From NCBI GenBank assembly GCA_947623455.1, contig OX392534.1:32238926-32302925 (forward strand): 64,000 nucleotides of DNA, written 5' to 3'. Made by a program: the position numbers and the translations under genes. The stretch is from Mimachlamys varia (taxonomy: Eukaryota > Mollusca > Bivalvia > Pectinida > Pectinidae). Shown here one piece after another: positions 20,101 to 63,700 of this stretch (the stretch's first letter is position 1; each line of letters starts with the position of its first letter). Below the pieces are notes generated by a model, which worked only from the letters and a program-made list of their open reading frames with translations, did no database searches and was not told where the DNA came from.

Positions 20101-23100
20101 ATATTCACCAGTGCCCAAACTCAGGTATTCACCAGTGCCCAAACTCAGGTATTAATAGAAATCCACCAGAATATTTACCAGTACCCAAACTCAGGTATTA
20201 ATAGAAATCCAACAGACTAGTCACCAGTACCCAAACAACCCCACCAGAATATTCACCAGTACCCAAACTCAGGTATTAATAAAAATCCACCAGACTATTC
20301 ACCAGTACCCACACTCGGGTATTAATAGAAATCCACCAGAATATTTACCAGTACCCAAACTCAGGTATTAATAGAAATCCACCAGAATATTTACTAGTAC
20401 CCAAACTCAGATATTAAAAGAACTCCACCAGAATCATCCTGTTACCAATACTGTAACTTTGGATACAACCAACACTGAATACTTCTTTGGGTTTAACTTT
20501 TGTGTTAAGAAACCACCTTAATACTCCTGAAACCAAATTTCACAACCTACCTGAACACTTTCTGTACCAAAACTTCAGTTAAAAATAATACTCCCATCAC
20601 CCCAACTTGGCAAAAATGTTCCAAGCATACCCTCCAGTTCTTAAACATGAATTGGACACTTCCCAGATACATTTCTTGGTCACGCCCTGTTTAAGATTTA
20701 CTGCCACAATTAATTTTCAATTAAGGTTCAAAAGCAGAAAGATTTAGCTTCATCATTAAAAATCATATTTTGTTTCCTCAGGCAAAATAACTGATTACTG
20801 CAAAGATAATTAAACTTGCGAGAGAGACCAGCCCTATATTAGGAATTCTCAACTGTACTTATTTTCATGTGAACTGAATAAGACCTTTTCAATAACAGAT
20901 CTATCTTTAAAGTGCAGAAGACTAAGTGATGCTTGTTGTTATTTCAGATTAACATTTCTTGTGTGTTCTGTTGGCTTCACATCGCCAATGTTGTTTGATG
21001 AAAAGAAACAACCATACCACCTGATGCTACAGAAGTTTGTCTCTTCGGGAGGACAGAATGCACTGTTTGAGTGAGTATCAATTACTTCTGGGTTCACCAA
21101 GTTGTAGCATGAATGTGTTCTTGAGTCATTGTAAAGAAAGGCTTATGGATTAACTTGACAAAATAAATGTTAAAGTCTTATCAGAATTTTCAGATTATGT
21201 TGACTTTTTGTGGAAAAATTGAGGTTTACACAGATGTTCACTTAAATTTGTAACATTTGTGAATTTGTTCCTCACATAGAATCTATAAGTACTAATAGCT
21301 TTGCTTTAAAAAAGCACATTTCTCATTCGCAAATTCTAGCAACATGTTTGATATTAAACAGCTTTCTTATAAATTTGAAAACTATCGTATCATTGCCTGC
21401 TTACAGAGCCTTCTCTTGGGCATTATCCATTGATGGGAAAGTCCAGATGTCTGATGGTCTAGAGTTTCCTGAACTACCAGGTAAAGTATGGCAACACAGA
21501 TGAGTGTTGGATAAAGTGAAACTATGGACAACTAACCATTTGGATTCCTTAAATTAATATTGGAATTGAATATATAAGGCTCATCATTTTACAAGGGTTA
21601 TGATAAATGATAATGAAAATGAAGACTACTTTAAAAAATGAGAAATAAAAGAGGTATTTAAGCTTGAATATATTTTACAGTTGCTATTTATGTTTGACTA
21701 CTGTCTTTTGTTCAGATGGTACTGGGGAGTTCATTGATGCTTGGCTGATGTTGGTGGAGAAAATGGTGAATCCTAAGACAGTTCTGGAGTCAACACATAC
21801 TCTACCAGAGAAGTCTAGTCAGGCAGGCTTTGTTCCCTTCAGTCCAGTCCAGTACCTCATCAGCACACAAAAGGTATATATCTTTCTCTTAGATATGGTT
21901 AAATGTGTTTTTTGATTGTCATTGCAGAACTTTTGGTGATTGGAGGACATACTAGTAGATCGTTATATGCTTGTTGTCTGTTGTAGTCTGCTTTCAATGC
22001 AGTGATGCACCTATGGAACAAGAAACCCTTGAAGCTGTATGGAGGCCGCATGTCGGAATCAATCCTGGCTATCTTGTGTCATATCATCAAAGGGGAGGCC
22101 ATAATAAAGGTGTGTTCAATGTAGAACCATTGGGCAGGGTTACATAGCTCATCTGTTTTCTTTTGCTTTTTTTTTTGTAATTATAATCTTGAAAATCTTT
22201 AATATTTGTTATAAATGGCATATTTGCTATAAAATGCTTTCAAATCTATAAAGTTCACTCTGGATGTATTTACTGGTGCCTGTGACATATGAATGACTCT
22301 AGACTTTCAATCTTTGTTATAAACACGTTTTACTGCTTAAAAATGAATTATGTCCGAGCACTTCTCTTGATAGTAAAAATTTTGCTTGTTATGATAAGGT
22401 GTGATTTTGAATAACTTTTGGGGGTGTTATTAAAGCTAATACGTTTTACATTGATGTTATCGCAGGATTACTTGGGTAAGGAGAAGGAGGAGACACCTAG
22501 CACGTCGGGAAATAGCATAAGTATCCTGGCACCGGCTGCAGCCGCTGCTACTGCTGCTCCAACGCCTGCTTCTGTACCGCGACCCAGCATCCCCGAGATC
22601 AATCAGTCACACTTACAGCAGGTCAGTTACTCACAGAGATCAATCAGTCACACTTACAGCAGGTCAGTTACTCACAGAGATCAATCAGTCACACTTACAG
22701 CAGGTCAGTTACTCACAGAGATCAATCGGTCTCACTTACAGCAGGTCAGTTACTCACAGAGATCAATCGGTCACATTTACAGCAGGTCAGTTACTCACAG
22801 AGATCAATCGGTCACACTTATAGCAGGTCAGTTACTCACAGAGATCAATCAGTCACACTTACAGCAGGTCAGCTACTCACAGAGATCAATCAGTCACACT
22901 TACAGCAGGTCAGTTACTCAACAAATCACATTTATGATGCATTTAAATCCAAATGCTATCTGGGATGTTGACATTTTACTGTGGAAACAAAAATTCAAGA
23001 ATCATGCCTTATTGGAACAATCACAGGATGATAGAGAAATGTTGCTGAGGTGTGATTTATATACATATCTTCGCTGTGATGATGTATTGAAGTCAAGTAA

Positions 23101-26100
23101 ATATCAGAATATCATTGGTGATATATTGATTGGTCAGGTGAAAGTCATGGCATATAGTCAAAAACGTTCAAATCAATTTTACAATTAAATTTTGGATCAA
23201 CTTCAGATGGTTTTACTGATTTGTACAATATTTGTTGGTGTGTTAAAAGTTGATGGACATGGGTTTCTCAAGGGAGCATGCCACACAGGCCCTCAATCAC
23301 ACCACCAGTATGGAGCAGGCCACGGAGTACATACTGACACACCCACTGGTCCCACCCCCCAGGACTCCGGCAAATGTAAGCAATGTAAGAAACTTATTAA
23401 AATAGATTTCTATTGCCAGTTCAGATCATTTAACATATTAATTAGCCATACTTTCTTTTATTATAGCTGGACAAGATTATTTCTATTTTTGCATGATCTC
23501 TTACAATCTTGTGGAGTTATAAACATTCACAAATTTCTTCTACATACACTGGACTTGATGTAATATTGTAAATAATATCCCATATCATTGTTAACAATAT
23601 CCCCCTTTCATTTAATTTGCTCTTCTGATATGAAGAGATATTTTGGTGTGATTAACCAGAATGTAACGTTTTTGTAGGTTAACATGAATTCAACTTTCCA
23701 GTGATGAATATATCATAGACAAGCATATGTCATAATATCCTTGATGATATATTGATAGTGACTGAGGAAAGCTAAAGTTCTTGCAACAACAGAATTCAGG
23801 TTTGATTGGGAAAGGGAGTAAAAATAAGTGTTTTGCTGGAAAAATTTGTGTGGTACAATCTTTGAGCTGATGTATATGTGGAAGGACAAGTAAAGCTAAG
23901 AGTAATTATATAGCAATTAACACTGAATAGCACATCTGTAAAAGGGTGGTTAAAAAGGAGGGAAAAGTGTTTTCAAATAATGTTATTGAAAATTGTGGAA
24001 CTGGGGTCTAAAATAGGTTAAATATGTAAAGAACAAACCCAATTTACTTGTGTCCTTTTCACCTTTTTATGTAAGCTATTTGATATGCTATCAGCCTCCT
24101 TTCCTTCCATACTGTATAGACACTGTCTTTGTGTCGGGGGATCCATATGCTTTGCAGTGGTAGACTTCTCGATGATGAATATATCATAGACAAGCATATG
24201 TCATAATATTCTTGATGATATATTGATAGCGACTGAGGAAAGCCAAAAGCCTTGTAAAAGCATGATCAATGAAAATGTAAATCATCAATGATAAATGAAT
24301 GTTTGTTGGGGAATGGGAGTGAAAGAGGTACAGCACAATGTTATTACAATGGAAACCGATATGTGGAAATGCCTTCTGTCTGTTCTATAGGGTGAAGAAC
24401 TTTGATTTCATTTAATGCTGTGAAGTCTTGTTACAAAATTATAGTTTAAAAACTCATATAGCAACTCTTGCAATTTGTGAAACCAAGGTAGCTTTTAATA
24501 CCATTTGATACTAAAGAAGTGTTATTACACTATTGCCACCTCCAGTGCATCTGTGTCCTTTTCACCTGAGTTGATGTAAGTTTGTCTGGTTTCTCTCCTC
24601 TCCCTCATTATTGGCCATGAATTTCACTTTATATTTACAAGATTGCTGATCAATTTGATAAAATTGTATTTGTGGAAAGGCATCTGTAGGCTTTGCAGTG
24701 CTAGACTTTCCAGTGATGAATATATCATAGACAAGCATATGTCATAATATCCTTGATGATATATTGATAGCGACTGAGGAAAGTTTGGTTGACTAGTAAG
24801 ACAAGTATATATTGTGTTAGTCAAAATTGAAAGGAAATCCTTATCTGATCAAGTATATGTTTGCAATCTTGTGGCTGCTAGCCCTTACAGCATCATGTTC
24901 TATAATTGAGAATGTCAAAAATGACAACCGTAGGAGAACATTTTCAAACTCTTCATGTTTAATTGGTAAATGTGTTTTGTTTTGTTGAAATTAACGTGTT
25001 GAATTATTAGTAGGTAGTGATCTTTGCTTTGTATTTTTGGTACAATTTGTACTCTACAGGTAAGACTAATTATGTTGAACAGTATGCATATAAACTCAAG
25101 GTTCATGAGTCTATCATTTCCTTTGTAGCCTCTTGGCATGGTACTAGAGATGTCTGAGGAGGATCAAATGATGCGAGCCATAGCAATGTCTTTAGGAGAC
25201 AATATCCTTATGTCTACTGACGAGGTAGGTGTTCTGGGTAGAAAATACCGCTACATCCATGTCTTTAGGAGACAAAATCCTTATGTCTACTGGCCCCGGT
25301 TTCATCAACATTCCTTAACTTAAGGAAATTCTTTAACTTAAAAATCTAAAAAAAAATTAAAAATAAAGGAAAGCATTACAAAATTTAAGGGGAAAATCCT
25401 TAGCTAAGGAACTTTCCTTAAATTCTGTAATGCTTTCCTATGGAGATTTTTAAGTTAAGGAATTTCCTGAAGTTAAGGAACGTTGATGAAACCAGGGCCA
25501 GAAGAGGTAGGTATTCTAGTGAAAAATAACCCTAATCAAATGTGTTAAGGTGACAATGTCCTTATGTCTACTGACAAGGTTGGTATTTAAGGCAGAAAAT
25601 AGCCCTCTTTCCATGTCTTTAGGCAAAAATATCCTTGTCTACTGACGAGGGAGGTATTTAAGACAGAATATTGCCCTATTACTATGTCCTTAAGCAACAA
25701 TATCTTATCTACTGACCAGTTGGTTTTTCCAGTCAGATAATATCCTGACCATGTTCCTAAACAGCAATATCATATCAATAGCTTTCATCCTAAACAATGT
25801 GAAATGAGAATATGGAAAGCTATTCTCAACTCATGGAGCTGTATTTAGTGTCCAAGTGAGCTGTTATAGAGGTATTCTAACATGTGTCTTGTGTTGATAA
25901 AAAGTTGCGTTTTAACAAACATATTGTGTTACAGAGTGCACCGAGTAGTTCTTCCTCCAAACAGGAGGCGCCCAAGCCTGAGGAGACAGAAATTGATGAA
26001 AAACAAGAGAAGGAGGAACCACTTGATCGGACGACAATTGACCAGTTCACTGATACTGTCATGCCTGGTAAGTTGATAAACCTGATCTAGCTTCGGTCGA

Positions 26101-29100
26101 GGAAGGTATGGAATCTCTTATCTGAAGGTTCTAGTTGGTTTGTATGAAAACGTTTGTTTTTAAGCAATATTGGTCTGTTCTGAATAGAAATGAAAAAAGA
26201 TTGTTTTTAAGCAATATTGGTCTGTTCTGAATAGAAATGAAAAAAGATTGTTTTTAAGCAATATTGCTCTGTTCTGAATAGAAATGGCAAAGTCTTTTCT
26301 GGTGACAGTCTCTGATATTACCCTTCCAATGATGAATATATCATAGACAAGCATATGTCATAATATCCTTGATGATATATTGATAGCGACTGAGGAAGTG
26401 TTTGGACTTTTGTTAAATTTTTAAATCTAGAAAGGAAGCTATCAAAATGCTTTGTTAGATATTTGTAAGAATTTTGCAAAATCCAGCATATGGAAATAAT
26501 GAAAAGGTATTTTGCAAAAACAAATATATTATATAGAAAGAGCTGGCCAAACAGGACTAGAAAACAATACAGGGAGGTAGTAAGTTTATATACAGTATAC
26601 TGTCCAAAAAGCAGGTTCATTTCAGACCATTATTTTACTAAACTTGATAAACTTGGTACAAGTTAGGTTTTGTTTATAAAATGAGCTGCATGAATATATC
26701 AGTTCATAGTGTCAGTGAATGTGAGCTTTACAACAACTGAGTATTAAGGCCCTAGTTTAGCTGAGAACTGACAACAAATCATTGATCAAGGGGAAATCTT
26801 CCCTGCTTCAGGATGAGAGAAACACAACTATTAAAAAAAGTGATTGGTATATTGTGTCAAATATTTAGTCTTATCAGTAAGATATGGAAGCTTTCCAGTG
26901 ATGAATATATCATAGACAAGCATATGTCATAATATCCTTGATGATATATTGATAGCGACTGAGGAAAGTAACGTCTTATTCTTAGTTCAGAACTTTTAAG
27001 ATATTATAGTACAGCTTTTTCTTTAGCAAACAACAGTATGAAGTCCTTTTCTCAAATCCTTATTCAGACATTTCTGTTAGGTTGCCTTTATTTTTATTAT
27101 GGGTAAGTCTGTAAGACCAGCTTGAATTTAACTAAATTTTAATTTCAGAAGAAAGTTATATCGAATTTCAGAAGAACTACTGTTTTGCTTTAGCCATACA
27201 AGTTAATGTTTCATGATATAAAATAGTTACTGTACATCCAAAATACCCTTTCCAATGATGAGTATATCATAGACAAGCATATGTCATAATATCCTTGATG
27301 ATATATTGATAGCAACTGAGGAAAGTTTTGTCCCATTCTTAGTTAAGATTTTAGAATTTTATAGTACAGATTGTTCTGTCCCAAACAACATTATGAGTAA
27401 ATTCTTTAAAATCCTAATACCTGGCACATACCTCTGTTAAAATTAAGGTTACCCTTGCTTTCATTATGGGTAATTCTGTAAAACCAGCTGGAATGAAAAT
27501 GAATTTGAATTTCAGAAGCACTTCTGATGCGATTTTTCTTTTGTTTTAGCCATACAAATTAATATTATGAAATAGTTACACCAAAAATAACCTTTACCAT
27601 GATGAATATATCATAGACAAGCATATGTCATAATATCCTTGATGATATATTGATAGCGACTGAGGAAAGTTTTGTCCCATTCTTAGTTGAGATTTTAGCA
27701 TATTATATATTACAGATTTCCCTGTCCCAAACAACAGTATGAGTGAATTCTCTAAAATCCTAATACATGTACAGACATTTCTGTTAAAACTCAGGTTACC
27801 TTTACTTTCATTACAGGTAATTCTGTAAGACCGGCTGGAATGAAAGTAAATTTGAATTTCAGAACTTCTGGAATGTTATTATTACTGTTTTGCTTTAGCC
27901 ATACAAGTGTATGTTTAATATTATGAATTAGTTACACATTCAATAACCTTTCCCATGATGAATATATCATAGACAAGCATATGTCATAATATCCTTGATG
28001 ATATATTGATAGCGACTGAGGAAAGTTTTGTCTCATTCTTAGTTCAGGACTTAGGATATTATAATAAATTTTCCTTTGCCAATCGACAGTATGAAATCAT
28101 AATAAATTTTCCTTTGCCAATCGACAGTATGAAATCATTCTCTCAGTTATATACAGACATTTCTATTAAGAACCAGGTTGCTTTTACTTCCATTACAGGT
28201 AATTCTGCAAGACCAGCTAGAATGAAAGTAAATTTAAATTTCAGAAGAACATCTTTTATGTGATTACGGTTTTGCTTAAGTGATACAAGTTTGTTTGATA
28301 ATATGAAAAAGTTACTTTACACCCAAAATACCCTTTCCCATGATGAATATATCATAGACAAGCATATGTCATAATATCCTTGATGATATATTGATAGTGA
28401 CTGAGGAAAGTTTTGTCCCATTCTTAGTTAAGATTTTAGGATATTATAATACAGATTGTTCTGTCCCAAACAACATTATGAGTAAATTCTTCAAAATCCT
28501 AATACCTGGTACATACCTCTGTTAAAATTAAGGTTACCCTTTCTTTCATTACAGGTACTTCTGTAAAACCAGCTGGAAAGAAAATTAATTTGAATTTCAG
28601 AAGCACTTCTGATGCAATTTCTCTTTTGTTTTAGCCATACAAATTAATATTATGAAATAGTTACGCCAAAAATAACCTTTCCCATGATGAGTGTATCATA
28701 GACAAGCATATGTCATAATATCCTTGATGATATATTGATAGCAACTGAGGAAAGTTTGTCCCATTCTTAGTTAAGATTTTAGGATATTATGTATTACAGA
28801 TTTCCCTGTCGCAAACAACATGATGAGTTAATTCTCTAAACTTCTGATACGGACATTTCTGTTAAGAATTTGGTTGACTTTATTTTCATCACAAGTAATT
28901 GTGTTAGACCAGCTGAAACGGAAAAAAAATGAATTTCAGAACTTATTGGATGTTATTACTGTTTTGCTTTAGCCATACAAGTGTATGTTTAATATTATGA
29001 ATTAGTTACACCATCAATAACCTTTCCAGTGATGAGTATATCATAGACAAGCATATGTCATAATATTCTTGATGATATATTGATAGCAACTGAGGAAAGT

Positions 29101-32100
29101 TTGTCTCATTCTTAGTTAAGATTTTAGGATATTATGTATTACAGATTTCCCTGTACCAAGCAACATTGAGTTAATTCTCTAAAATTCTTATACAGACATT
29201 TCTGTTAAGAATTTTGTTGACTATATTTTCATTCCAAGTAATTCTGTAAGATCAGCTGAAATGAAAAATAAATGAATTTCGGAAGAACTTCTTTCTTTTT
29301 TGGTTTTAGCCTTACAAATTTATGTTTGGCATTTTATACTAAAAATACCCTTTCCAATGATGAGTATCATAGACAAGCATATGTCATAATATCTTTGATG
29401 ATATATTGATAGCAACTGAGGAAAGTAACATCTTATTCTTAGCTATCACATAACTGACCCGTTCAGTCATGTCATACGGCCATGTCATAAAAATGGTATT
29501 ACACACGTGTAATTACACTATTGTGACGTCATAAACAAATGATGTCTTTGTGACGTCATATACTTGTCTCGGTAGTGAAAATTGTACTGTCACAGAAGAA
29601 TTTTGCCTTTCCTATAGAGAAATAATTTGAGAGGTTTTGTGTATTTTCTCATAAATATAAGTTATGTGATATACAGAATCTTACACTTGTGTCAATGTAA
29701 TATGGAATTTATTAAACTCGTTAAATAAATTCCATATTGCATCAACACTTGTGTAAGATCCTCTATCTAGGACTTGAGGATATTATATTATACCGTAGAC
29801 TTTTCTGTCCCAAATAACAATATAAACTATTTTCTCAAATCCTTATTGTGAAAACTGACATTTCTGTTCAGTCAGGTAGCCTACTTTTCCTGTAAATCTG
29901 TAAATCTTTGTAAGACAAATAAGAATGAATTTAGGTTAGGTTTTTAGAATGGATATTTTATTTGAAATCTGTTTAACAGTTATTTCTGATTTCACCATAT
30001 AAATATGTGATATGGAATAATTACACTGATAATAAGAATCTTTCCAGTGATGAGTATATCATAGACAAGCATATGTCATAATATCCTTGATGATTTATTG
30101 ATAGCAACTGAGGGAAGATGACGTAACACACACTTGTGCACCTTTTAAATTTGGAAAAAAAAAAGATAAATGTAGAAGGAAATTAGGCAAAATAAGATAT
30201 AGAAAAACATTTCCGTCTTCCCCGTCAGATTATGTATTGTAAGTTAAGGATGGGATTTTGTAAAATACAGGTTATGGGTTTCTGTGTATTGTAAACATTC
30301 ATAGTCTGGCTTGAGGTGTAAACATGGAGATAGATTGGGTTTAGTTATAAGTTTATGAAATTATATGTTTCAGGTTGTCTGACATTACTTGACACTCTCC
30401 CGGAGACCGTGTATCGTGTTTGCGACCTCCTAATTGTTGTCACACAGAGGAACGGATTGGAATGGCAGAAACGTGTTCTATCCTCGCTAGTTGAGGAGGT
30501 GAGCCAAAAGCCTACACATCTTAGACAGTCATCTGTCAATATCTCGGTGATATTTATAGCAGTCTAGGGAAGTTTATCAACTGCATTGATTTTGTTTAGA
30601 AATTTTGAGACAATATGCAGCCTTATTAACATCATTTTAAGAAAGTGCTATGTATGATAACTTTAATCTTCACAAATGTAGGAAAAAATCCACAACTTTT
30701 ACTTTTGGCCTAATGTTCAGATGATATTTGCATTTGACAGTATTTAGCAAACACAGTGAGTCAGGTGTATTGTTATAAATCAATTAATGATAATATTGAG
30801 TTTGGCTATTTTATCGCTAGTTGCTAGATCTGTTGGAGGTTTTCTGGTGTAGCCTACTTACAAGTGTTGTTTGTATTACAGGTGCAGTCCCTTGGCCAGA
30901 AGTTACTGTCAGTGGGCCATGTCTGTCCCGCAGACGAGCCCCAGACAGGCTCTAATGACAAGAAGGCATTCCATCCCGACTCCTGCAAATTTGCCACTCG
31001 ACTTCACCTGTTTAGCCTGCTGTTTGAGGTATGAAGCTTGAGGTCATCACTGTGTTTTCTGTTACGTGCTTAGTTTTTTCCACTTTACTCATGGTCTTAA
31101 CTTTGGAGAATAAGGCATGTGAACATTTTGAAGTATAAATATCTTGTTACTTGGCTGTTGTAGGAGGCGAGGATGCCTTGTGCGGAGACAGTGGAGAAGG
31201 TCTACCTCACCGACCTCCTGGTACAGGTGCTCAGTAGTGGGCAGGAGTTCCTCACTGCTAACCGGGATTACGTCTCACCGAAGTAAGGCTCGGTCTCACA
31301 ATCATATGTGTCGGTCTGAAAGCCATCTACTCAAAACCAGCAGGGAATGATTCATCTATCTACCTTAGTGTTATGTGCTATTTCTTCCCTTAAGCAGTAT
31401 ATTTAATGTGGTGGAATTCACTTTCCAGTGATGAGTATATCATAGACAAGCATATGTCATAATATCCTTGATGATATATTGATAGTGACTGAGGAAAGTT
31501 TTGTTGCTTGCAAAAAAGACTGTTAGCAGGGTTTGTACTGGGTATTTTATAAATGGGATCCTTTCCTAAATAAATGGGTCCTTCTGCATAGTTTAAATGG
31601 GAATCCTGAAAATTAGTGTGGTCCTTTTCAGTTTCTTTGCTTGAGAAAGATATAAGGGTGGCTTCAACACAAACATTGGGGTAGTAAGTAATCCTTTCAA
31701 ACAATACAAGAACTCTCAGCAATCCACCCTCCTAACTCAAACCCCATCTGGTTTTTGTCCCACCCAAAGAATGTCCCACCCAAAGAAAGTCCCAATATCA
31801 GGTTCTTTGTCTTACAAAAGGAAGTAATGCTTCACACTCAAACCCCACAGGTACTCTGTTGCTTAAGTTCCTCTCTCTACTAAAACCCTATAGAGACTTT
31901 TTCTCACTCTCCCCATTGCAAAACCTTGTAGGAATTCTTTCCAATGCAAGTCACTGTCCGGTGTAGACAGAAACTAGTCAGCCAATGAAAATGTCTCGGT
32001 TTAGACAGGGCCTAGTCAACAAAACTAACACTAAGCAATTTCCACATCCAAAACTAGAAGGGAATGCTTCTTATTTATTAAAAAACCTTGTGTTAGATCC

Positions 32101-35100
32101 CCTTTCTTTCCTGTGATGAGTATATCATAGACAAGCATATGTCATAATATCCTTGATGATATATTGATAGTGACTGAGGAAAGATTTTAATCATTCTTTG
32201 TCAAGAATTTTGTATGGGATTATCTGCTCTTTCTCCACTCTTGATATACAGGGGATGGGTTACACTCACCTTCGCTCTCTACACCCCTGGAATAAGTCAC
32301 AGAGAACAGTTCCGTACAAAAAATCAAGAAATTGTAAACCTGCAAAATATTACAACTATACAGTAGAGTGTAATTTGATAACACCTGGTGGATACATTTG
32401 TGGTTTTGGTTGTGGCTGTTGACGTACAACTATTAATACTTCAAATGTGAATGTCTGCTGTTTGTAAATATAGGACATCTACAAATGTTTGTAACACTAT
32501 ATGATCTAAACTGCTTCAAATAAATCTATTGTCATTGGTTTTACTAAAAACCAATGACAATAGATTTATCTTACATCCAACTTGAGGGAACTTTTGATGT
32601 CACAATTATAGAAAAAGGTTTTGAATAGAATAATAAAGAATTGATTTTCTAAGGTATTGACTATTGTGTCTTAGGTTGACTGTATATTTCAGAATCTTTC
32701 CTGTGATGAGTATATCATAGACAAGCATATGTCATAATATCCTTGATGATATATTGATAGCAACTGAGGAAAGTTTGTTCAACATTTTATTCAAAAGTTG
32801 AAAGTGAGGAACAAAATCTTTTAAACAGGCACACTTAATGCTTGGAGGATACATTTCATTTACACATATAATCAGTCAAAACATAATGATCTATTCCAAA
32901 TGTTTTATGTGAATAGCAAACAATATCTGTCAAAATCAGACATTTTCTACCTGGTATCATTTATGTGAAGAATTACTTCATTATTTTTAGCAAATTCACA
33001 ACTCATCTGCCCTGTATTCTTCCATTCATTTCAAGGTTCTAAAATTTAGTTTTTTATTTTCTTCTTGTTAATATTTCTGAAGTATTTCCACCCAGGATTA
33101 ATGTTTATCATTACAATTACTAAATATAATGAAACTGGATTATGAAAAAAAAGTACTCAGTCTGGCAAATGAAACTTTGGAACTTAAAAGACCAATTAAT
33201 TATTGGATTGTTGCCTTTATGTTTTAGATGGCTAGCACCACTGCTACTGTTGCTGGATCTGTATGAAAAAGTATCTGTGATATCTAGACGTAAGGTGGAT
33301 GCTGAGAAACTATTGGTAAGACTCCATTGCTGTTTTAATATCAAGGCTAACGGTGGCTCTGCTCTTTCGTGCACAACAGCAATTTCCATTATACATGACT
33401 GTATAAATCTATTGTCAATCAAATTCAGTTGATAGAATTTTTACAATGTTTGTAGCACAATTTGATAGAAATTTTGTTTTAAATTACAATGAATTCAAAT
33501 ATAACTCCTCTAAGCAATAATGTGGTGAATTTTACTTTCCAGTGATGAATATATCATAGACAAGCATATGTCATAATACCCTTGATGATATATTGATAGC
33601 GACTGAGGAAAGCAGATATAATTACGATCACTTTTTGAATATGTGACATCACAGTTTTGTGTCTTTGAACTATAGTTTTACCAGGGTATTTCATGACTAG
33701 AAAACAAGGTTGCATGTCTTTGAAAAATAACCACTTACCATATCAGATTTATTCTCTCTTTAAGAGTTATCAAAAACTTACAATGTCTATAAAAAGATCA
33801 ATGTATTCTGATTTGGTTTTAACAGGCGGCCAGTCATACGTGGAAGTGGTTTGATGACAGTACAGGGCGCTGGTGTAAATACAGTCTGGGCAACAACAAA
33901 ACAATCGACGATGCTTACCAGTCAGGAGAGTCCAGCATCAGGTACCTCTCATTTTTATGTCGGCCTACGTCAGTGTGTAAAACATCTTCACTTTCGGCAT
34001 GTATCCATCTGTTCATGATTTGGTTTCACTTCAGTAACTTGACAAATTAACTAATTTGTAGTTGATACAATGTTGCTGAACTAAAGACGTAATGTGGTTT
34101 GTAGGTTCCAGGCTGGCAGACGGAGGTACACGGTCCACTTTAACACAATGATGCAGGTATGGTCATAGCCCTTTTTAAAAAAATTGATTCCTAGATTATT
34201 AGTGATTCAATGCAGTCAGCTGTCATTTGGTGATATTGTATATGTTGGATTACTTCATGTTGTTAAACATTGGAATATAACAAAGGTTTAATGCGATTTT
34301 GATCACAATCTAACCAAATGGTTAATATCACATTTATTTGGAAATTAGTTGTATAGATGATCTGGTTCCTTGCATAGAAGAAATAATAAACAAAATAATA
34401 CATTACAGGTTAACGAGGAGACAGGTAACAGGCGCCCTATCATGCTGACTTTGCCTACAGTGGAGGAGAAACAGCAGGCAGAACAGGGTGATAAGAAGGT
34501 CTCCAACAAGGAGGGTGAAGCTTCCCAGCCAAGTCCTGTGTCTGGTAGACTTAATTACTCTTTTGTTTGATATGCACAATAACAACAGGTGTACAAATAT
34601 ACTTGATCATCATGGTTGGTTAATGCAAACTGTTTTATTTTGTTTTAACGTAAAAAAAACCCCATGTGAATTCAAGCCACAGATTGATTGTTTAGATAAA
34701 GATAAAGGGTTCATGGTGTAGTTGTTATTGACATTCACAGAAATCTCTGCAATTAATTGCCTGACACAGATTTGTAATATTCATTCTATTTTTATTCAGA
34801 GAGTAAAATGGAAACCGAACCTGTTGAGAGAAAGATTACGAGAGAAACAAAGATCGTGAATGGCTTAAACTCTGATCAGATCACCAGTGTTATAAGGTGA
34901 GGGTCCAGCAATATAAAGAAAAAACATTGAATGTAATCCTGAAATTTTATCTCCCCCTGTGAAATAATTTCTGAAGACAAATCACTTTCTCCTTATAAAA
35001 GCAATTTAATATTTAAGCTTGGAAAATATAAAAAAATATCCCAAATAAAATCTGTTTTCTGACACCCTAGCAAATCTTGGTTAGCACAAGGTATAGGAGT

Positions 35101-47100: not shown

Positions 47101-48738
47101 TTAGGTGGAAGTAGGGTTATGGTCCTTTAAGATATAATTCTTGGGAATCATTCTTTTATTCAGTTTTCGGATTGAATTTGAAAACAAACTACAGGTATGA
47201 GTTGATATTGCAAGGCACAGATAGAGAAAGAGACTGATCTCTACAAAATTTGGCATGTGCAGGTCAAGGGGACCAGTCATACTGGGTCAAAACTAAGTGT
47301 TGGTCTATCACTAGTGTGGTAACAAGGTTGATGTGCAGAAATATAGAAGGAATTAAAACTAAGGCAGAACATTTAGTGCTTGGTTTAGAACAATTCCAGT
47401 CTATGTACTGTGGTTTATTTGTGCCATGTGGGATAAACAAAGGTAGCACTGGGGTCTTTAACATAGTAACTTGAGACTCCTGAGATGAAAGTAGACTAGA
47501 GGGCTACAACTATTACAACATAGGTCCAAGTGCACTTAATGATGATACACTGGAGTCTGAATTGTTTATGACTGAACAAACTCAATCACTCTTAATTTTT
47601 TTCTCTGAAAGTGCCTTGGATGATATTGTTTTGAGATATGATGACTGCAGCCGATATAGTTTTTGAGAAGTTTGCTTTGTATTATGAATGTCCTATGAAC
47701 TTTAGGTTACTGTTGGTTCTTCGGAGGCTGAGAGCAGGACCTAGGTTTATGGTTCCTTGCTTGGAACTTTGTGAATTAGGCACACCAATCCAAGTTGTAA
47801 CTCGTGACACAGAAATGTCACTATCTAGGACAATATTGGACGATCCGATAACTAACTTCACATTTTCATCTTCAAGTGTTTATTGCATTACTATTGCTTG
47901 GTTTGAGTTTTAAAAAACTTTTTATGGTAAGACATTGTACATAATTTGAAACATGTTATGAATATTTCATTTAACTGCAAAGTTTACTATGGACTTGGTA
48001 TAACCTCTAACCTTCTGTCTACGTTAAGAGAGGGTTTGGAAACTCAAAAGCTACATTATAATGGGTACTATATTTGTACAACTCGCCAGTCATATAAACC
48101 TTGTTCCATAAGTCTTGACAGAATATTTTGTAATGCACTCATTAAACATTAAATAAAGTTCACTTGTACAGTAGCTTTGGTGAGATGGTCTGACATGAAC
48201 AACCAATGATGTCGTTGAATTGCACTAAATGATGATGAACCGAGTCTGAATTGTTTATGACTGAACAATCTTAATCACTCTAATTTTTTTCTCTGAAAGT
48301 GCATTTTCAATTAAAAAATATATACATAACGCCTTTAACTATTCAGATTGTTGTTGGTATGATTTGACCTTTAGTTTTATGATCCATGTCAGTGCCTGAA
48401 GTGTGATCGCTTCTCTTGTGTTAACAGCGAGTTCAGAAGAGTTGGCTGGATCAGGCCCAGAGACATTGCCCACCACATCATCTCCAATCATCAGTCATGA
48501 GACAGCACAGTCCATTGACTCTGGGCTTCGCAGTTTCCTCATGGGTGGTGCTTCAATGTAAGTTTTACATTTTACTAGTGGATTCATAGAATTATCGAGA
48601 TAGTTGTCAAAAATTCACAATGTTACGAGTACCAGTAGTGTTGTTTTAAGTATAAGTTCATGGGATAATTATGTCCCCCAAACGAAGTGGGGGGACATAT
48701 TGTTTTTGCTCGGTTTCTTATTATTATTATTATTATTC

Positions 48739-48771
<33 letters not shown>

Positions 48772-51700
48772 TTGTTTCTTCCACTTTCTTCCGCCGCGGA
48801 GGTTTCCGACCGTTTTCTCAAAAACTACTGGACGGATCTTCACGAAACTTCACACACATACTCATTAGGGGCGGGGTGTGTGAAAACGGGTTGTTTTTTC
48901 GCGACCGGAAGTCCAAGATGGCCGCCAGAGCTAATTTCCGGTTTTCAAAATTCAGTCTCCGATTTCAGTAAAAATTGGTACATGGGTGTTTTAAGGGATG
49001 CTGAATAACATGGTAACATTTTCGTAAAGTTTGGTTGCCACCGAAACGAAAATGGAGGCCTCTGATTGGTCGAAATTTATATATTGTCCGATTTCAATGA
49101 AATTTAATATATATGTGTAGTATTACACCAACAACATTGTCGTCACATCCGTTTCATGATTCGTCAACATGGCCGCTATTTCCTGGCTTCTGATTGGTCG
49201 AAATTTATATATTGTCCGATTTCAATGAAATTTAATATATTTGTGTAGTATTACACCAACAACATTGTCGTAACCTCCGTTTCGTGATTCGTCAACATGG
49301 CCGCTATTTCCTGGCTTCTGATTGGTCGAAATTTATATATTGTCCGATTTCAATGAAATTTTATATATAACTGTAGTAGGACACCACGGACATTGTCGTA
49401 ACCTCCGTTTCGTGATTCGTCAACATGGCCGCTATTTCCTGGCTTCTGATTGGTCGAAATTTATATATTGTCCGATTTCAATGAAATTTTATATATAACT
49501 GTAGTAGGACACCACGGACATTGTCGTAACCTCCGTTTCGTGATTCGTCAACATGGCCGCTATTTCCTGGCTTCTGATTGGTCGAAATTTATATATTGTC
49601 CGATTTCAATGAAATTTTATATATAACTGTAGTAGGACACCACGGACATTGTCGTAACCTCCGTTTCCTAATTCGTCAACATGACCGCTGATATATGGGG
49701 TGTCAGCTATATTTCCATTGTGAGTTCATTGGGCTCATCAGTTCCGACCAAAGGGGTAGTTTGGGGGACATCTGTAATGGTACCCCATTACAATAAGCAC
49801 TTGTTTAAATGGAAATATATGCTACAGAATATTATGGCTTTAATCATGCTTGTTGAAGATTTCATCAACATGTACATTGTGTCATTCCTTGATTCAAACA
49901 GATTTTGGCTAACATTTAGCGATTCAGTGTACAGAAATCTCTTAGCTATGAAAAATGATGAGTGTGTTTATTGATATATCAAAAATGATAATTGGGCTGT
50001 CACACTAAGTAGCAAAGTTATGGCCTCACCACCCCATAACTTTCCATAGTGGCGGACGACGAAACCTCTTGAGGTCATCAGATCAGTTCAAAGTCGAATT
50101 TCACATATCTTAACTGTTAATTATTTTCTTATTTCATTACAACAAGGTGTCAACTGACCAAAACATCAAGGTCAACAGGTCAAAGATCAAGTTTTACAAT
50201 TTCCTAGATATTAGGGTCAAATAACATAACTGGAACCTCCTGACATGTCAGTGTTTTGCTTAAACAATATATACAACTAATTTACAAGTGATTTATAATT
50301 ATGAGCTGATGTGGCCTTAGTATGTTTAGAACGTCATATCTACCTAGTCGTATATCTCTTGAATTTGCCAATTCTTCGTTAGCATTTCCCCTTATTTAAA
50401 CTATGATAACTTTGGTACCCAAATATATTCTTTACATATAACTTTGGGTAAGTTGCAACTGTGGGGCCCTTTGAGATGCTTTCCATCTAGTTTTATATGT
50501 ATTCAAAACTTATATATGACATTAAGGTTTATAAACTTTTCAGGTCATCAGTGTTAGAGAGTGCCACTGGGATGTCAGATGTCCCTACTTCCACCTCCGG
50601 GCCCCTGGACCCTAACGCCCCACTCCTGCCTAGCAGTATTCTCAGCTCCCTGGACCCTGGGTCCATTCCCCTGCCCCCTCTGACCACGGAGGGTGCTATA
50701 GGTGGTGCAGACATCAGGAGTGCTCTACCCTCTACCTGGACGATCCCCACCACTACCACTGTCACCATGCCCACGATAGGCTCGACTGGGTCTATGGAAG
50801 GACCATCATCCTCACGCAGTGCATCAGGTACATGCTGTTAATGTCTGTTATAGATACAGTATTACCATGTAGACTTTTGTAATCAATAAATTCTGCCATC
50901 CTATGTTTTACCACTGGCTCAGCTGGTTATGCCTCACTAAGATATCAAAAGTACTGTCATACTATGAATAATTCATGGTTAACTAGAATCCAAGGCAAAA
51001 ATTGTATAAATTATATGAGCATTGTGAAAGTGGGACCATAAATTCAGTTTTAGGTAATTTTAGCCAGCACATGTCAGCTAACACTTTTATTGATTTGATT
51101 AGAATGGACAGGAAGAAAACACGCATTACATGGTTCACAGACTATTTTTAAGTTAAAATTCAAATTTCAACAGAATCTGTCATGATTTAGATTATCGATT
51201 TAAAATGATAAAAGAGATGATTATCATAAATATGTTATGCAGTATGCAAAGAAATATAAACAGACTCTTTCCACTCTAGATCATTTTGACATTTCAGTGT
51301 ATTGGGGATGGTTATGGAATAAAATTTGTAATACAGTGGATTGTGCTATATAAAAAAAAACCCCATGAAATATGATAATTAAAAACATTTGTTTAGATCA
51401 TCATTTGATATTTATACTCTTGATAATGTGCAAACTAAATGGACTTTTTATATCAAAAACAATACTTACCACATCCAATTATTATTATGCAAATGAGTTC
51501 TACAACTACCAGTTCTTTAACTCCCAAAACGAAAGTGAAAACGCCCCGTGCGAATACGAAACTAACATGTGTCCATACCGGACGTAGTATAGAATGCGCA
51601 CGCACCTCGAGCTTCCTCTTTCTTCAACTCTCCGAAGAAGCACATGGCCTAGCGTTTGCTCTTAACTTTCGAGATTGTTTTGGAGTGCGGGTTTCCCCTG

Positions 51701-60700: not shown

Positions 60701-63700
60701 TTATGTCTATAGTCGGGAATGTTTTATGATTTACTCCTATATGTACAGTAAACTACCATCAACTTTGATAAATGCTATATTGATTTAAATTTATATAAAT
60801 ATGAATTATATTATTTAGCACTGTGTATCTCCGGTGGTGTACTGTTGTGACATCTCCGGTCGTTAATCAGTGCCATATCAATGTAGTGATTAGCATCGTT
60901 GGATGTTGGTCTGTTGTGACCTGCACTCTTGGTATCGTAGCTACAACAATATGCTTCTGGGAGTTTGGTTTTATATTTAAAGTTGGCCATCCCATAAATT
61001 GTGGTGGTCACATAAGGATGTTTTAATGAAAGATGGTAGAAAAAAATTAAATGTCTTGAATAAATATGTATAGATATTAGAGCAAAGCTGATGATTTTGT
61101 ACCAACAGGTGCTTACATCCAAGTCGTGTTCTGAGGAGGGACTAGAAGATGCAACCAACTTGCTGCTTCGTATGTCTTGGGCCAACAATGCCACACGAAA
61201 TGCTGTCCTACGGCTTCTACTTGAGGGCACACAGGAATTGGGACAGACCGTCTGTAGTCACATCAGGTACACAATTGTGATGTCTAGACGGAACTCAGAA
61301 ATATTAATGCTGAGAATGTTGATTCAAGTGTGCAGGTTGAGGCTAGATGAAGCGGATGACCTATTCTAGTCAAGTACCATTTCTCATTTTGCTCATGCAT
61401 CTTCATCAAATCAGAATGCTTATTGGTAATAAATTATGGTTACAAGGGGGAGGGGGGAGATAAGAACAGAGGACAGCTTCTGTAGTTTGTTGGAGGGAAA
61501 GAATTTCTGTGATTGCTTACGTGACAAAAGACGTGATTCTATATTGTATCAAACTGTTAAAAACATTAAAATGCAAAATTCTCAGTGATAATACTAGTAT
61601 CTAATCATTACTGAAAAAAAATTGCCCTCACATCTATTGTTGTAATCTGTTAACTTGTATATACAGTATTGGCTTAAATTGTGAAAAGTTATTTTATGTC
61701 AATGTTAGACCATTGGCTACATTGAATTATCAATTCTACAGGAGTCTTCTACAAGAGCTGAAGAAACACAGTGGGAAGCCTAAGGATGAGGATGAAGAGA
61801 TGAAGGATGCTGAAGGGACCTCGGCTCCCACAGGCAAAGGCATTCTCCAAGACAGGTAAAATCTCTTAAAGGCCCAATATACGTAACTTTCGGCAAAACT
61901 TGAATAGAAAATCAAGCCTAATAACTGATTATATTTATAGATTTAGTTAAGATTAACTGATATCAGCAATATTCAAGATGAATTCTTTCGCGGTTATCGG
62001 TACAGCAGCATTTGAAACACGCTATTTGTAAACACGCGTTCATTTCAAACCGTTTTCTACCTTCAGTTTGTTATTGAAGTGGGCCCCACCTGAATTATTT
62101 TCAATTCTTTGGATTTTTTTGTCAAGAGTTTCTTGTTAGTTACCGCTCAGGTTTACTTTGTTTTATGCTTATTTTTGCATGGTTATCAAATGGATTTTTT
62201 TTCAGAATTTTTCAGAATCACGAAAATATCCCCTGTAAAACCATATGAATTAAAGGCCCAATGCCTTTAATTCATATGGTTTTACAGAGGATTAAGATTT
62301 TTAATTATGTTTTCATTTTCTGTTTTATTATCATTGACAACTTATCAATTGGTGATTTTTTTTTTCCATTACAAAATAATATATCATCAATCACTTAAGG
62401 GCTGTTAATAAGTATTCCTCCAGGAACGGAGGGGAAAGTTTTGCTTTGTGTCTATCTCTTCATTCTTCCCCCATCTTGTCCGTGCTCTATATCATACACT
62501 CTTTGTCACTGGAATTTCATACTTGAGGGAAAGGGTCCACCATGGGGAGGCAGTGTGTCATGTTTCAAACATTTAGACCTTTGTCCTACATAAAATTAAA
62601 AAATTGTCCTGATTCCTAATTATAATAAATACACTACTTGTCACTGGAATTTAATACTTGGAGTATGGGTTCACTTTGGTGAGCAATCAAGTAAGGGAGT
62701 GCAGTAGAATACATGATATCACCAGATACCATTTGATAGTAAAATGGCACCACTTATCAGTTAACATCTACCAAACAGATTTTGCAGTGGTAGCATTAAC
62801 ACTACAAAATTAGTTCCTACATAAATTTATCATCCTGGCATATGATTCAGATTTGGGAGGGGCTTTGAACTTTACTGGTCACAATAGCTTTGATTAGAAC
62901 GGGATTTGGCTGTAGAATTACTTGCTTGTATCTAATTCAAGTATTGAAAATCAGCAAGTTTGACATTTTTCTTTTTTTTTTAGGTTTACACTGGGTACCA
63001 GCATAGTGGTGGCAGCCCCTAAGAAGGTGAAGGGTGGCCGTGAATTACAGCTGCCATCCATGTCCCTTCTGACGAACAAGACATCCAGCCAGCAGTTCCT
63101 ACTTCGTATCCTGAAGGTCATCATCCAGCTCCGAGATGCTGCCAGAACCATGGTCAAACGGGGCCGCAGACAAACGAGTATGGTCAAGTTCTTGTCAATC
63201 TTTAATGTACAGGATATTACATGCCATTTTCATTTCTCTCTACTTCCAAGAACAGTCTCCATGAGCATTCACTCTGTCGAATAATTGTAGTCCTTGTCCT
63301 ATAAAAAACACTGCCTTCCTCTTCACGCAGGAAGGTTTGAAAATAATAACTTACTGTTGCTGATCAAATTCTATACTCAAAGAGAGCCCCTTACTATTTG
63401 AAAACTTTCATGAAATGACAAACTGAGAAGAACTCGAATAATCCTGAATATTGTTTTGTTCAGGTGGCCATTGAGGCCCTCAGGCTTCTTATTTCTAATT
63501 TTGACAACTTATCCTTTCAGCTTCACGGGATTTAGGTAATATCGCAGAAGCTATGGCAGCCCTGGAGGCTGAGGCAGAGGCTATCATAGAAATGGTTGGA
63601 CGACGTGCACAACAGAACCACCAGATCCGGGAGTTACAACAGCGTGCCACTCCAGCGGCACAGGTTGAACCCACAGAGGCCACTCCCACTTCTACAGCCA

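What the first reader, a model, noticed from the sequence alone, without database searches (positions are those of the whole stretch)
23694..33612. Seventeen-copy expansion of a U27/SNORD27-like snoRNA inside HUWE1 introns
A ~78-bp repeat recurs 17 times in introns 32, 34, 37 and 38, always in the sense strand. Seen: boxes C and D, C', a terminal stem in nearly all copies, and an unchanged 13-nt guide complementary to the 18S 5' end. Known: SNORD27 (human, hosted in SNHG1) and yeast snR74 methylate this adenosine. To my knowledge neither a HUWE1 host nor this copy number has been described. A repeat caller would probably label it an anonymous interspersed repeat.
Basis: partly seen in the sequence, partly recalled or inferred. 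Interest (0 to 1): 0.92.

Follow-up and report, generated by a model that had tools for sequence, protein, structure and literature searches.

The report
Seventeen-copy ribosome-guide snoRNA array in HUWE1
A scallop gene, HUWE1, carries seventeen near-identical copies of one small guide RNA for chemically marking ribosomal RNA inside four of its introns, ten of them in a single intron; the genome searches that were answered found no copy anywhere else.

Summary
All 17 copies hit SNORD27 (Rfam RF00086, 36.6-43.7 bits, below Rfam's cut-off of 52), all on the plus strand. Boxes C, D, C', a D'-like box and the guide GACAAGCATATG are identical in 17 of 17. The host is HUWE1: flanking exons match human HUWE1 collinearly, E 4.8e-85. 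Four introns hold 3, 10, 3 and 1 copies. Assembly size, chromosome and mitochondrial lengths match the scallop Mimachlamys varia. Whole-genome searches (975 Mb) with a box C+guide pattern and a 78-mer each returned only these 17, so this is not a transposon. In the tandem part the core differs by 4% between copies, its flanks by 24-30%, as expected under selection. I conclude these are C/D guides for 2'-O-methylation of 18S A27, multiplied inside one protein-coding gene. Expression, methylation and this species' own 18S were not tested; a diverged guide gene elsewhere is not excluded. Multi-copy snoRNA arrays are known, mainly imprinted orphan families of mammals; a large array of a conserved rRNA guide, ten copies in one intron of a protein-coding gene, looks new in the papers searched.

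The parts
23694..23771 (+). copy 1, SNORD27-type C/D snoRNA (intron 23376-25128)
   Evidence: RF00086 41.5 bits; 6/6 stem pairs
24165..24242 (+). copy 2 (same intron)
   Evidence: RF00086 38.3 bits; 5/6 stem pairs
24706..24783 (+). copy 3 (same intron)
   Evidence: RF00086 41.2 bits; upstream flank shared with copy 2
26322..26399 (+). copy 4 (intron 26068-30373)
   Evidence: RF00086 43.7 bits; 5/6 stem pairs, one UA-to-CG change on both sides
26891..26968 (+). copy 5 (same intron; edge of the tandem array)
   Evidence: RF00086 41.2 bits; downstream flank homologous to copies 6-11
27248..27325 (+). copy 6 (same intron, tandem array)
   Evidence: RF00086 41.6 bits
27592..27669 (+). copy 7 (same intron, tandem array)
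   Evidence: RF00086 37.6 bits; 5/6 stem pairs
27948..28025 (+). copy 8 (same intron, tandem array)
   Evidence: RF00086 43.1 bits
28333..28410 (+). copy 9 (same intron, tandem array)
   Evidence: RF00086 43.3 bits
28677..28754 (+). copy 10 (same intron, tandem array)
   Evidence: RF00086 39.3 bits
29022..29099 (+). copy 11 (same intron, tandem array)
   Evidence: RF00086 39.9 bits
29350..29425 (+). copy 12 (same intron, tandem array; 2-nt deletion after box C)
   Evidence: RF00086 38.8 bits
30040..30117 (+). copy 13 (same intron; upstream flank related to array copies 7 and 10)
   Evidence: RF00086 36.6 bits; a U-G pair keeps the stem
31421..31498 (+). copy 14 (intron 31283-33227)
   Evidence: RF00086 39.1 bits
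32106..32183 (+). copy 15 (same intron)
   Evidence: RF00086 37.7 bits
32696..32773 (+). copy 16 (same intron)
   Evidence: RF00086 37.7 bits
33535..33612 (+). copy 17 (intron 33316-33825)
   Evidence: RF00086 39.6 bits
23250..34156 (+). HUWE1 exons (UBA to WWE coding region) flanking the four introns: 23250-23375, 25129-25224, 25935-26067, 30374-30498, 30882-31028, 31164-31282, 33228-33315, 33826-33941, 34105-34156
   Evidence: splice sites and one open reading frame (first exon end moved by one base by hand); human HUWE1 residues 1325-1667, E 4.8e-85

Best explanation
The 17 elements are real box C/D snoRNA genes of the U27/SNORD27/snR74 type, made from spliced introns of HUWE1 pre-mRNA. Shown here: C, D, C' and guide are unchanged in every copy, the terminal stem is largely kept, the strand is the host's sense strand, and two whole-genome searches find no copy elsewhere. 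Inferred: each unit binds the C/D core proteins, is trimmed to about 74-78 nt and guides 2'-O-methylation of the 18S adenosine equivalent to human A27, five bases upstream of the D'-like box. Inferred: the copies arose by repeated duplication inside the gene (a tandem array of units of about 330-385 bp plus dispersed, probably older copies) and are kept because many units per transcript raise the yield of a housekeeping snoRNA that appears to have no other exact gene and sits in a host unlike the usual ribosomal-protein or SNHG hosts.
For: RF00086 hits in 17 of 17 copies, 0 on the minus strand. Boxes and guide 17 of 17, stem complete in 14 of 17. Core diversity 0.044 against 0.24 (upstream) and 0.30 (downstream) in array units 6-12; of all 78-column windows only those starting at columns 210 and 211 (the core is 211-288) are that low. 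Copies 1-4 and 13-17 share a 95% core while their flanks are at the shuffled level, 73% and 72% against a null mean of 72%. HUWE1 host. Whole-genome pattern 17 forward, 0 reverse, 0 and 0 in the reversed-pattern control; whole-genome 78-mer 17 candidates, 17 scored, all here. U27 and snR74 are listed as guides of SSU Am27/Am28 in human, Arabidopsis and yeast (PMC3511168, passage).
Against: All 17 scores lie below the RF00086 gathering score of 52. D' is CATA, not CUGA. The species' 18S was not obtained; complementarity rests on the recalled, near-universal 18S 5' end. No expression data. Several snoRNAs per intron break the usual one-per-intron rule of animals (PMC11028025, passages), so not every copy need mature. 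An internal 10-bp helix that overlaps C' is predicted (5 of 17 copies folded; counted on 17) and might compete with the C'/D' motif. Covariation of the two stems is not significant (43 of 500 shuffles reach it). Gene conversion is not excluded.
Confidence: 0.77

Rival explanations
1. Only a few copies are made into snoRNA; the rest are silent copies kept alike by gene conversion, so the number 17 has no function.
For: Conversion is discussed for mammalian snoRNA arrays (PMC11028025, section 7). Copies outside the array have largely unrelated flanks, so any conversion tract there would have to end at the core. A possible decayed 18th copy at 23058-23153 (30.4 bits with R1) hints that copies can die.
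Against: In the tandem part the flanks are homologous (82-85%), yet diversity jumps at the ends of the terminal stem; conversion tracts would not be expected to respect those ends. 17 of 17 copies keep every box and the guide.
Confidence: 0.25
2. The ten-copy intron works through long products: exonucleases stop at the outermost snoRNPs and leave a snoRNA-capped sno-lncRNA up to about 3.8 kb long carrying up to ten snoRNPs, instead of, or beside, free snoRNAs.
For: Introns with two C/D snoRNAs are known to give sno-lncRNAs (PMC11028025, passages). Ten copies lie in one intron, and no second conserved block that could be an endonuclease site appears between array copies 6-12.
Against: No RNA data. 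Unchanged guide and boxes fit the ordinary guide role. The copy-to-copy spacers are poorly conserved, so a product whose spacer matters is unlikely.
Confidence: 0.15
3. A mobile element (MITE or snoRNA-derived SINE) that happened to insert many times into this gene.
For: Multi-copy, AT-rich, self-complementary core; mobile snoRNAs are known (platypus, over 40,000 copies of one family, PMC3511168 passage). Short exact flank repeats exist in 6 of 17 copies (6-8 nt; in copies 6, 8, 10 and 11 a shared TAGTT-type repeat 12-18 nt off the core).
Against: Of 17 whole-genome matches 0 lie outside HUWE1; 17 of 17 in sense; longest A-run within 40 nt downstream is 6 (copy 14), at most 4 elsewhere, and 11 of 17 copies have no flank repeat of 6 nt or more.
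Confidence: 0.02
4. The snoRNAs act in cis or in trans on splicing (for HUWE1 or other pre-mRNAs) rather than on rRNA.
For: Human SNORD27 also affects E2F7 alternative splicing in a complex without fibrillarin (PMC7200641, passages).
Against: No target was looked for in HUWE1; the strictly kept part includes the rRNA guide.
Confidence: 0.06

Closest known systems
SNORD27 / U27 (human, host SNHG1; table in PMC10050728, passage) and yeast snR74, Arabidopsis AtU27 (PMC3511168, passage)
   Same: Same box layout, the 12-nt guide GACAAGCAUAUG of the RF00086 consensus, same length class; intronic host in human.
   Different: Protein-coding host HUWE1 instead of the lncRNA SNHG1; 17 copies; D' is CATA instead of CUGA; scores below Rfam's cut-off.
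SNORD113/114 and SNORD115/116 tandem arrays and rat Bsr (PMC11028025, section 7)
   Same: Many C/D copies in tandem inside one transcription unit.
   Different: Those are described as eutherian, in repeated introns of lncRNA genes at imprinted loci, with orphan targets; this one is in a mollusc, in a protein-coding gene, up to ten per intron, with a deeply conserved rRNA guide.
cis-duplicated snoRNA paralogs in vertebrate host genes, e.g. gas5-like in chicken (PMC2653536, passages)
   Same: Duplication within one host gene, guide kept by selection.
   Different: In chicken 28 duplicated C/D snoRNAs account for 67 paralogs in all; here one family alone has 17 copies in one gene.

Membership tests
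box C/D snoRNA | Box C (RUGAUGA) and box D (CUGA) near the ends with a terminal stem | tested here: met
   TGATGA 17 of 17, CTGA 17 of 17, stem 6/6 in 14 and 5/6 in 3 of 17; A or G before TGATGA in 17 of 17 (read from the listing)
box C/D snoRNA | Bound by SNU13/NOP56/NOP58/fibrillarin and expressed as about 75-nt RNA | not testable with these tools
   no RNA data available
SNORD27 (Rfam RF00086) | Covariance-model score at or above the gathering score (52 bits) | tested here: not met
   36.6-43.7 bits in 17 of 17, full-length hits, E 0.0002-0.011; hence filed as SNORD27-type by guide, not as a formal Rfam member
SNORD27 / snR74 by function | Guide GACAAGCAUAUG in the D' position | tested here: met
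   17 of 17; in the same model positions as the RF00086 consensus in the 4 alignments shown
SNORD27 / snR74 by function | Species' own 18S carries the complement and A27 is methylated | not tested
   RF01960 search of the own genome did not complete; methylation not testable here
mobile element (MITE/SINE) | Copies dispersed in the genome, both orientations | tested here: not met
   17 of 17 in HUWE1, all plus
imprinted-type tandem snoRNA array (SNORD113-116) | Orphan guide, lncRNA host | tested here: not met
   rRNA guide unchanged; host encodes HUWE1; imprinting not testable

The most novel reading that the evidence does not exclude
In this scallop the whole supply of the eukaryote-wide 18S A27 guide has moved into one E3-ligase gene and been multiplied there to offset a weak host, and its ten-copy intron matures by a route that breaks the one-snoRNA-per-intron rule: either cuts between neighbours, or a snoRNA-capped RNA bearing up to ten snoRNPs. 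This would tie A27 methylation dosage to HUWE1 transcription.
Probability: 0.25. Interest if true: 0.82.

Novelty: new variant of a known kind. Interest (0 to 1): 0.62.

Why it matters
It appears, in the papers searched, to be the first large local array of a conserved rRNA-modification guide in a mollusc and in a protein-coding host; a 2024 review (PMC11028025, section 7) says understudied genomes might harbour new snoRNA tandem repeats. It offers a natural test of how several snoRNAs are released from one intron, of whether host-gene strength sets snoRNA copy number, and of how snoRNAs multiply within a gene without leaving it.

Tried and rejected
Mobile element: rejected by whole-genome counts. 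Retroposition of single copies: no poly-A tail (longest downstream A-run 6) and only short flank repeats in 6 of 17 copies. Further copies nearby: none in 60 kb of flanks by guide string, strict C/D scan or model R1 at E up to 1. Second guide upstream of box D: looked at by eye only; two bases (YR) near box D vary between copies, so I claim none. Internal 10-bp helix: 99.4% of cells paired but no both-sides change in that helix, and 1 of the 5 copies folded (copy 13) is no more stable than shuffles (z -0.86; the other four -2.4 to -2.7), so left as an observation. Tree of the copies: 0 of 14 inner branches well supported, not used. Other flank pairs over the 99.9% null score outside the array (upstream 3-17, 4-16, 14-15; downstream 1-2) are mostly out of register and were not used; within copies 6-12, 21 of 21 upstream and 15 of 21 downstream pairs pass it. 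Species: a 334-aa HUWE1 piece searched in the protein database gave 48 hits, the top one a bird and most unnamed; settled by assembly statistics instead. 18S: the conserved 18S string is in 0 of 28 loci, five rRNA strings are in 0 of 20 small-contig starts, one of which reads no bases at all, Rfam at gathering score finds no nuclear rRNA in the 10 of those 20 that I gave it, and 0 viral contigs hold the 18S string; none of this bears on the species' 18S, since no rDNA contig was found. The search for a printed bivalve 18S primer listed 10 of 911 papers, 0 of them with the string. The RF00086 search of the genome listed only 2 of the 17 copies at E up to 0.001, with 65 of 357,724 candidates scored, and 0 of 14 control genomes; supersede it. 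The wider pattern (one guide base fewer, spacer 4-30) and the genome-wide count of the second C/D element did not complete, so a diverged A27 guide elsewhere is not excluded. The genome tool also warns that its counts are lower bounds and that withheld stretches read N.
Full report
What is there. A 78-nt element (76 nt in copy 12) occurs 17 times between 23694 and 33612, always on the plus strand. Every copy is a full-length hit of RF00086 (SNORD27), 36.6-43.7 bits, E 0.0002-0.011 for the 64-kb window against 4227 families; none reaches the gathering score of 52. Box C TGATGA, guide GACAAGCATATG, the D'-like TCATAATA, C' TGATGAT and box D CTGA are identical in 17 of 17; the terminal stem CTTTCC/GGAAAG has all six pairs in 14 and five in copies 2, 4 and 7. 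One stem pair shows a change on both sides (copy 4) and one a U-G pair (copy 13), but covariation as a whole is not significant, 43 of 500 shuffles reaching it. A strict C/D scan that knows nothing of SNORD27 returned 17 plus-strand and 0 minus-strand hits in 64 kb, 15 of them these copies, and 0 in 60 kb of flanking chromosome.

Host and species. Nine exons with consensus splice sites flank and interrupt the region and give one reading frame (the end of the first exon was moved by one base by hand) that matches human HUWE1 residues 1325-1667 collinearly (E 4.8e-85), from the UBA to the WWE domain. The snoRNAs lie in four of its introns: 3, 10, 3 and 1 copies. The last copy of each intron ends 345, 256, 454 and 213 nt before the next exon (from the coordinates). 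The genome has 975,302,275 bases in 71 contigs, the window's contig C8 is 51,607,064 bases, and contig C71 is 21,780 bases and mitochondrial by its small-subunit rRNA match and reading frames. The Mimachlamys varia assembly report gives 975.4 Mb, chromosome 8 of 51.61 Mb and a mitochondrial genome of 21.78 kb, from 44-fold HiFi reads (PMC11252643, search listing and passages). The scaffold count differs (82 reported, 71 contigs held). I take the species as M. varia, a scallop.

Not a dispersed repeat. The pattern TGATGAN{6,20}GACAAGCATATG over the whole genome gives 17 forward, 0 reverse, and 0 and 0 for the reversed-pattern control; all 17 are these copies. A DNA search with copy 5 (78 nt) gives 17 candidates, 17 scored, all here, 92-100% identical. 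This removes the MITE reading and suggests that the genome has no other gene with this exact guide beside an exact box C. A diverged guide gene is not excluded: the wider pattern did not complete, and the tool warns of withheld stretches and lower-bound counts.

Selection on the copies. Copies 5-13 belong to a tandem array with start-to-start spacing of 326-385 bp, 692 bp at its interrupted end: the flanks of 6-12 are 82-85% alike, the downstream flank of copy 5 matches copies 6-11, and the upstream flank of copy 13 matches copies 7 and 10. In units 6-12 mean pairwise difference is 0.044 in the core and 0.24 and 0.30 in the upstream and downstream flanks; gaps touch 2 of 78 core columns and 177 of 436 flank columns; no window away from the core is as conserved. 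Copies 1-4 and 13-17 keep 95% core identity while their flanks are at the level of shuffled sequence (73% and 72% against 72%); copies 2 and 3 still share some upstream flank. The sharp edges at the terminal stem, in units whose flanks are homologous, argue for selection on the RNA more than for conversion tracts, though conversion is not excluded. No poly-A tail and only short flank repeats in 6 of 17 copies were seen, so duplication within the gene is the likelier origin.

How it most likely works. Shown: sequence, strand, host, single location in the answered searches, constraint. Inferred from established knowledge of C/D snoRNAs: release from debranched introns, binding of core proteins, pairing of AGACAAGCAUAUG with CAUAUGCUUGUCU near the 18S 5' end (that 18S sequence is recalled; the search for the species' own copy did not complete), methylation of the residue five bases upstream of the D' position, equivalent to human A27 (listed for human, Arabidopsis and yeast in PMC3511168, passage). 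Inferred: the copy number offsets a host that is not one of the strong ribosomal-protein or SNHG hosts; human SNORD27 sits in SNHG1 (table in PMC10050728, passage). HUWE1's expression in the scallop was not measured.

What is unusual. A review states that animal snoRNAs predominantly follow one snoRNA per intron, that two in one intron can give sno-lncRNAs, and that large tandem arrays are known as SNORD113-116 and rat Bsr, the former orphan families in repeated lncRNA introns at imprinted loci, adding that understudied genomes might hold others (PMC11028025, passages and section 7). Chicken shows cis-duplication on a smaller scale (PMC2653536, passages). Here the guide is a deeply conserved housekeeping one, the host codes for protein, and one intron holds ten copies. 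No paper holds both SNORD27 and HUWE1. Searches on SNORD27/U27 copies (20 of 29 papers listed), snoRNA hosts with oyster (8 of 8), multi-copy snoRNA hosts (20 of 47, 6 of 6), snoRNAs in bivalves (15 of 49), SNORD27 with SNHG1 (10 of 80) and several snoRNAs per intron (12 of 27) listed nothing like it. Those listings were read as titles and abstract starts, apart from the papers named here, and cover open-licence PMC papers only.

Limits. No RNA evidence; no species 18S; no other bivalve genome; no count of other snoRNA families in this genome, so high copy number may not be special to this one.

Noticed in passing
47531-47615 and 48221-48304: Two copies (90% alike) of a second, unrelated C/D-snoRNA-like element on the plus strand: RTGATGA...CTGA, stem GCACTT/AAGTGC, internal CTGA and TGACTGA. 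No Rfam hit at E up to 1; the only strict C/D scan hits in the window outside the SNORD27 array. HUWE1 may host further snoRNAs; the genome-wide count did not complete.
   Followed up: partly
23058-23153: Weak 18th match to the array model (30.4 bits, R1; minus-strand self-matches reach 24.2), without the 18S guide and, by eye, with a damaged box D, just upstream of the UBA exon: possibly a decayed copy or chance.
   Followed up: partly
snoRNA core, alignment columns 25-34 with 62-71 of A1: Internal 10-bp helix AAUAUAUCAU/AUGAUAUAUU overlapping box C's last base and C', kept in 99.4% of cells, with A-to-G changes giving G-U pairs; it is not in the RF00086 structure line shown.
   Followed up: partly
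about 29446-29770: By eye, an insertion with a long inverted repeat (weak mir-556 match on both strands at 29670-29767) that interrupts the tandem array between copies 12 and 13; looks like a MITE.
   Followed up: no
22508-22999; 49057-49696; 25318-25500; 62222-62296: Minisatellite of 41-bp units, tandem repeat of 128-bp units, and two palindromic, MITE-like stretches seen by eye and as weak microRNA-type matches.
   Followed up: no
L004:2925-2968 (+): Hammerhead type I ribozyme-like match, 32.4 bits against a cut-off of 34, in the upstream flank.
   Followed up: no
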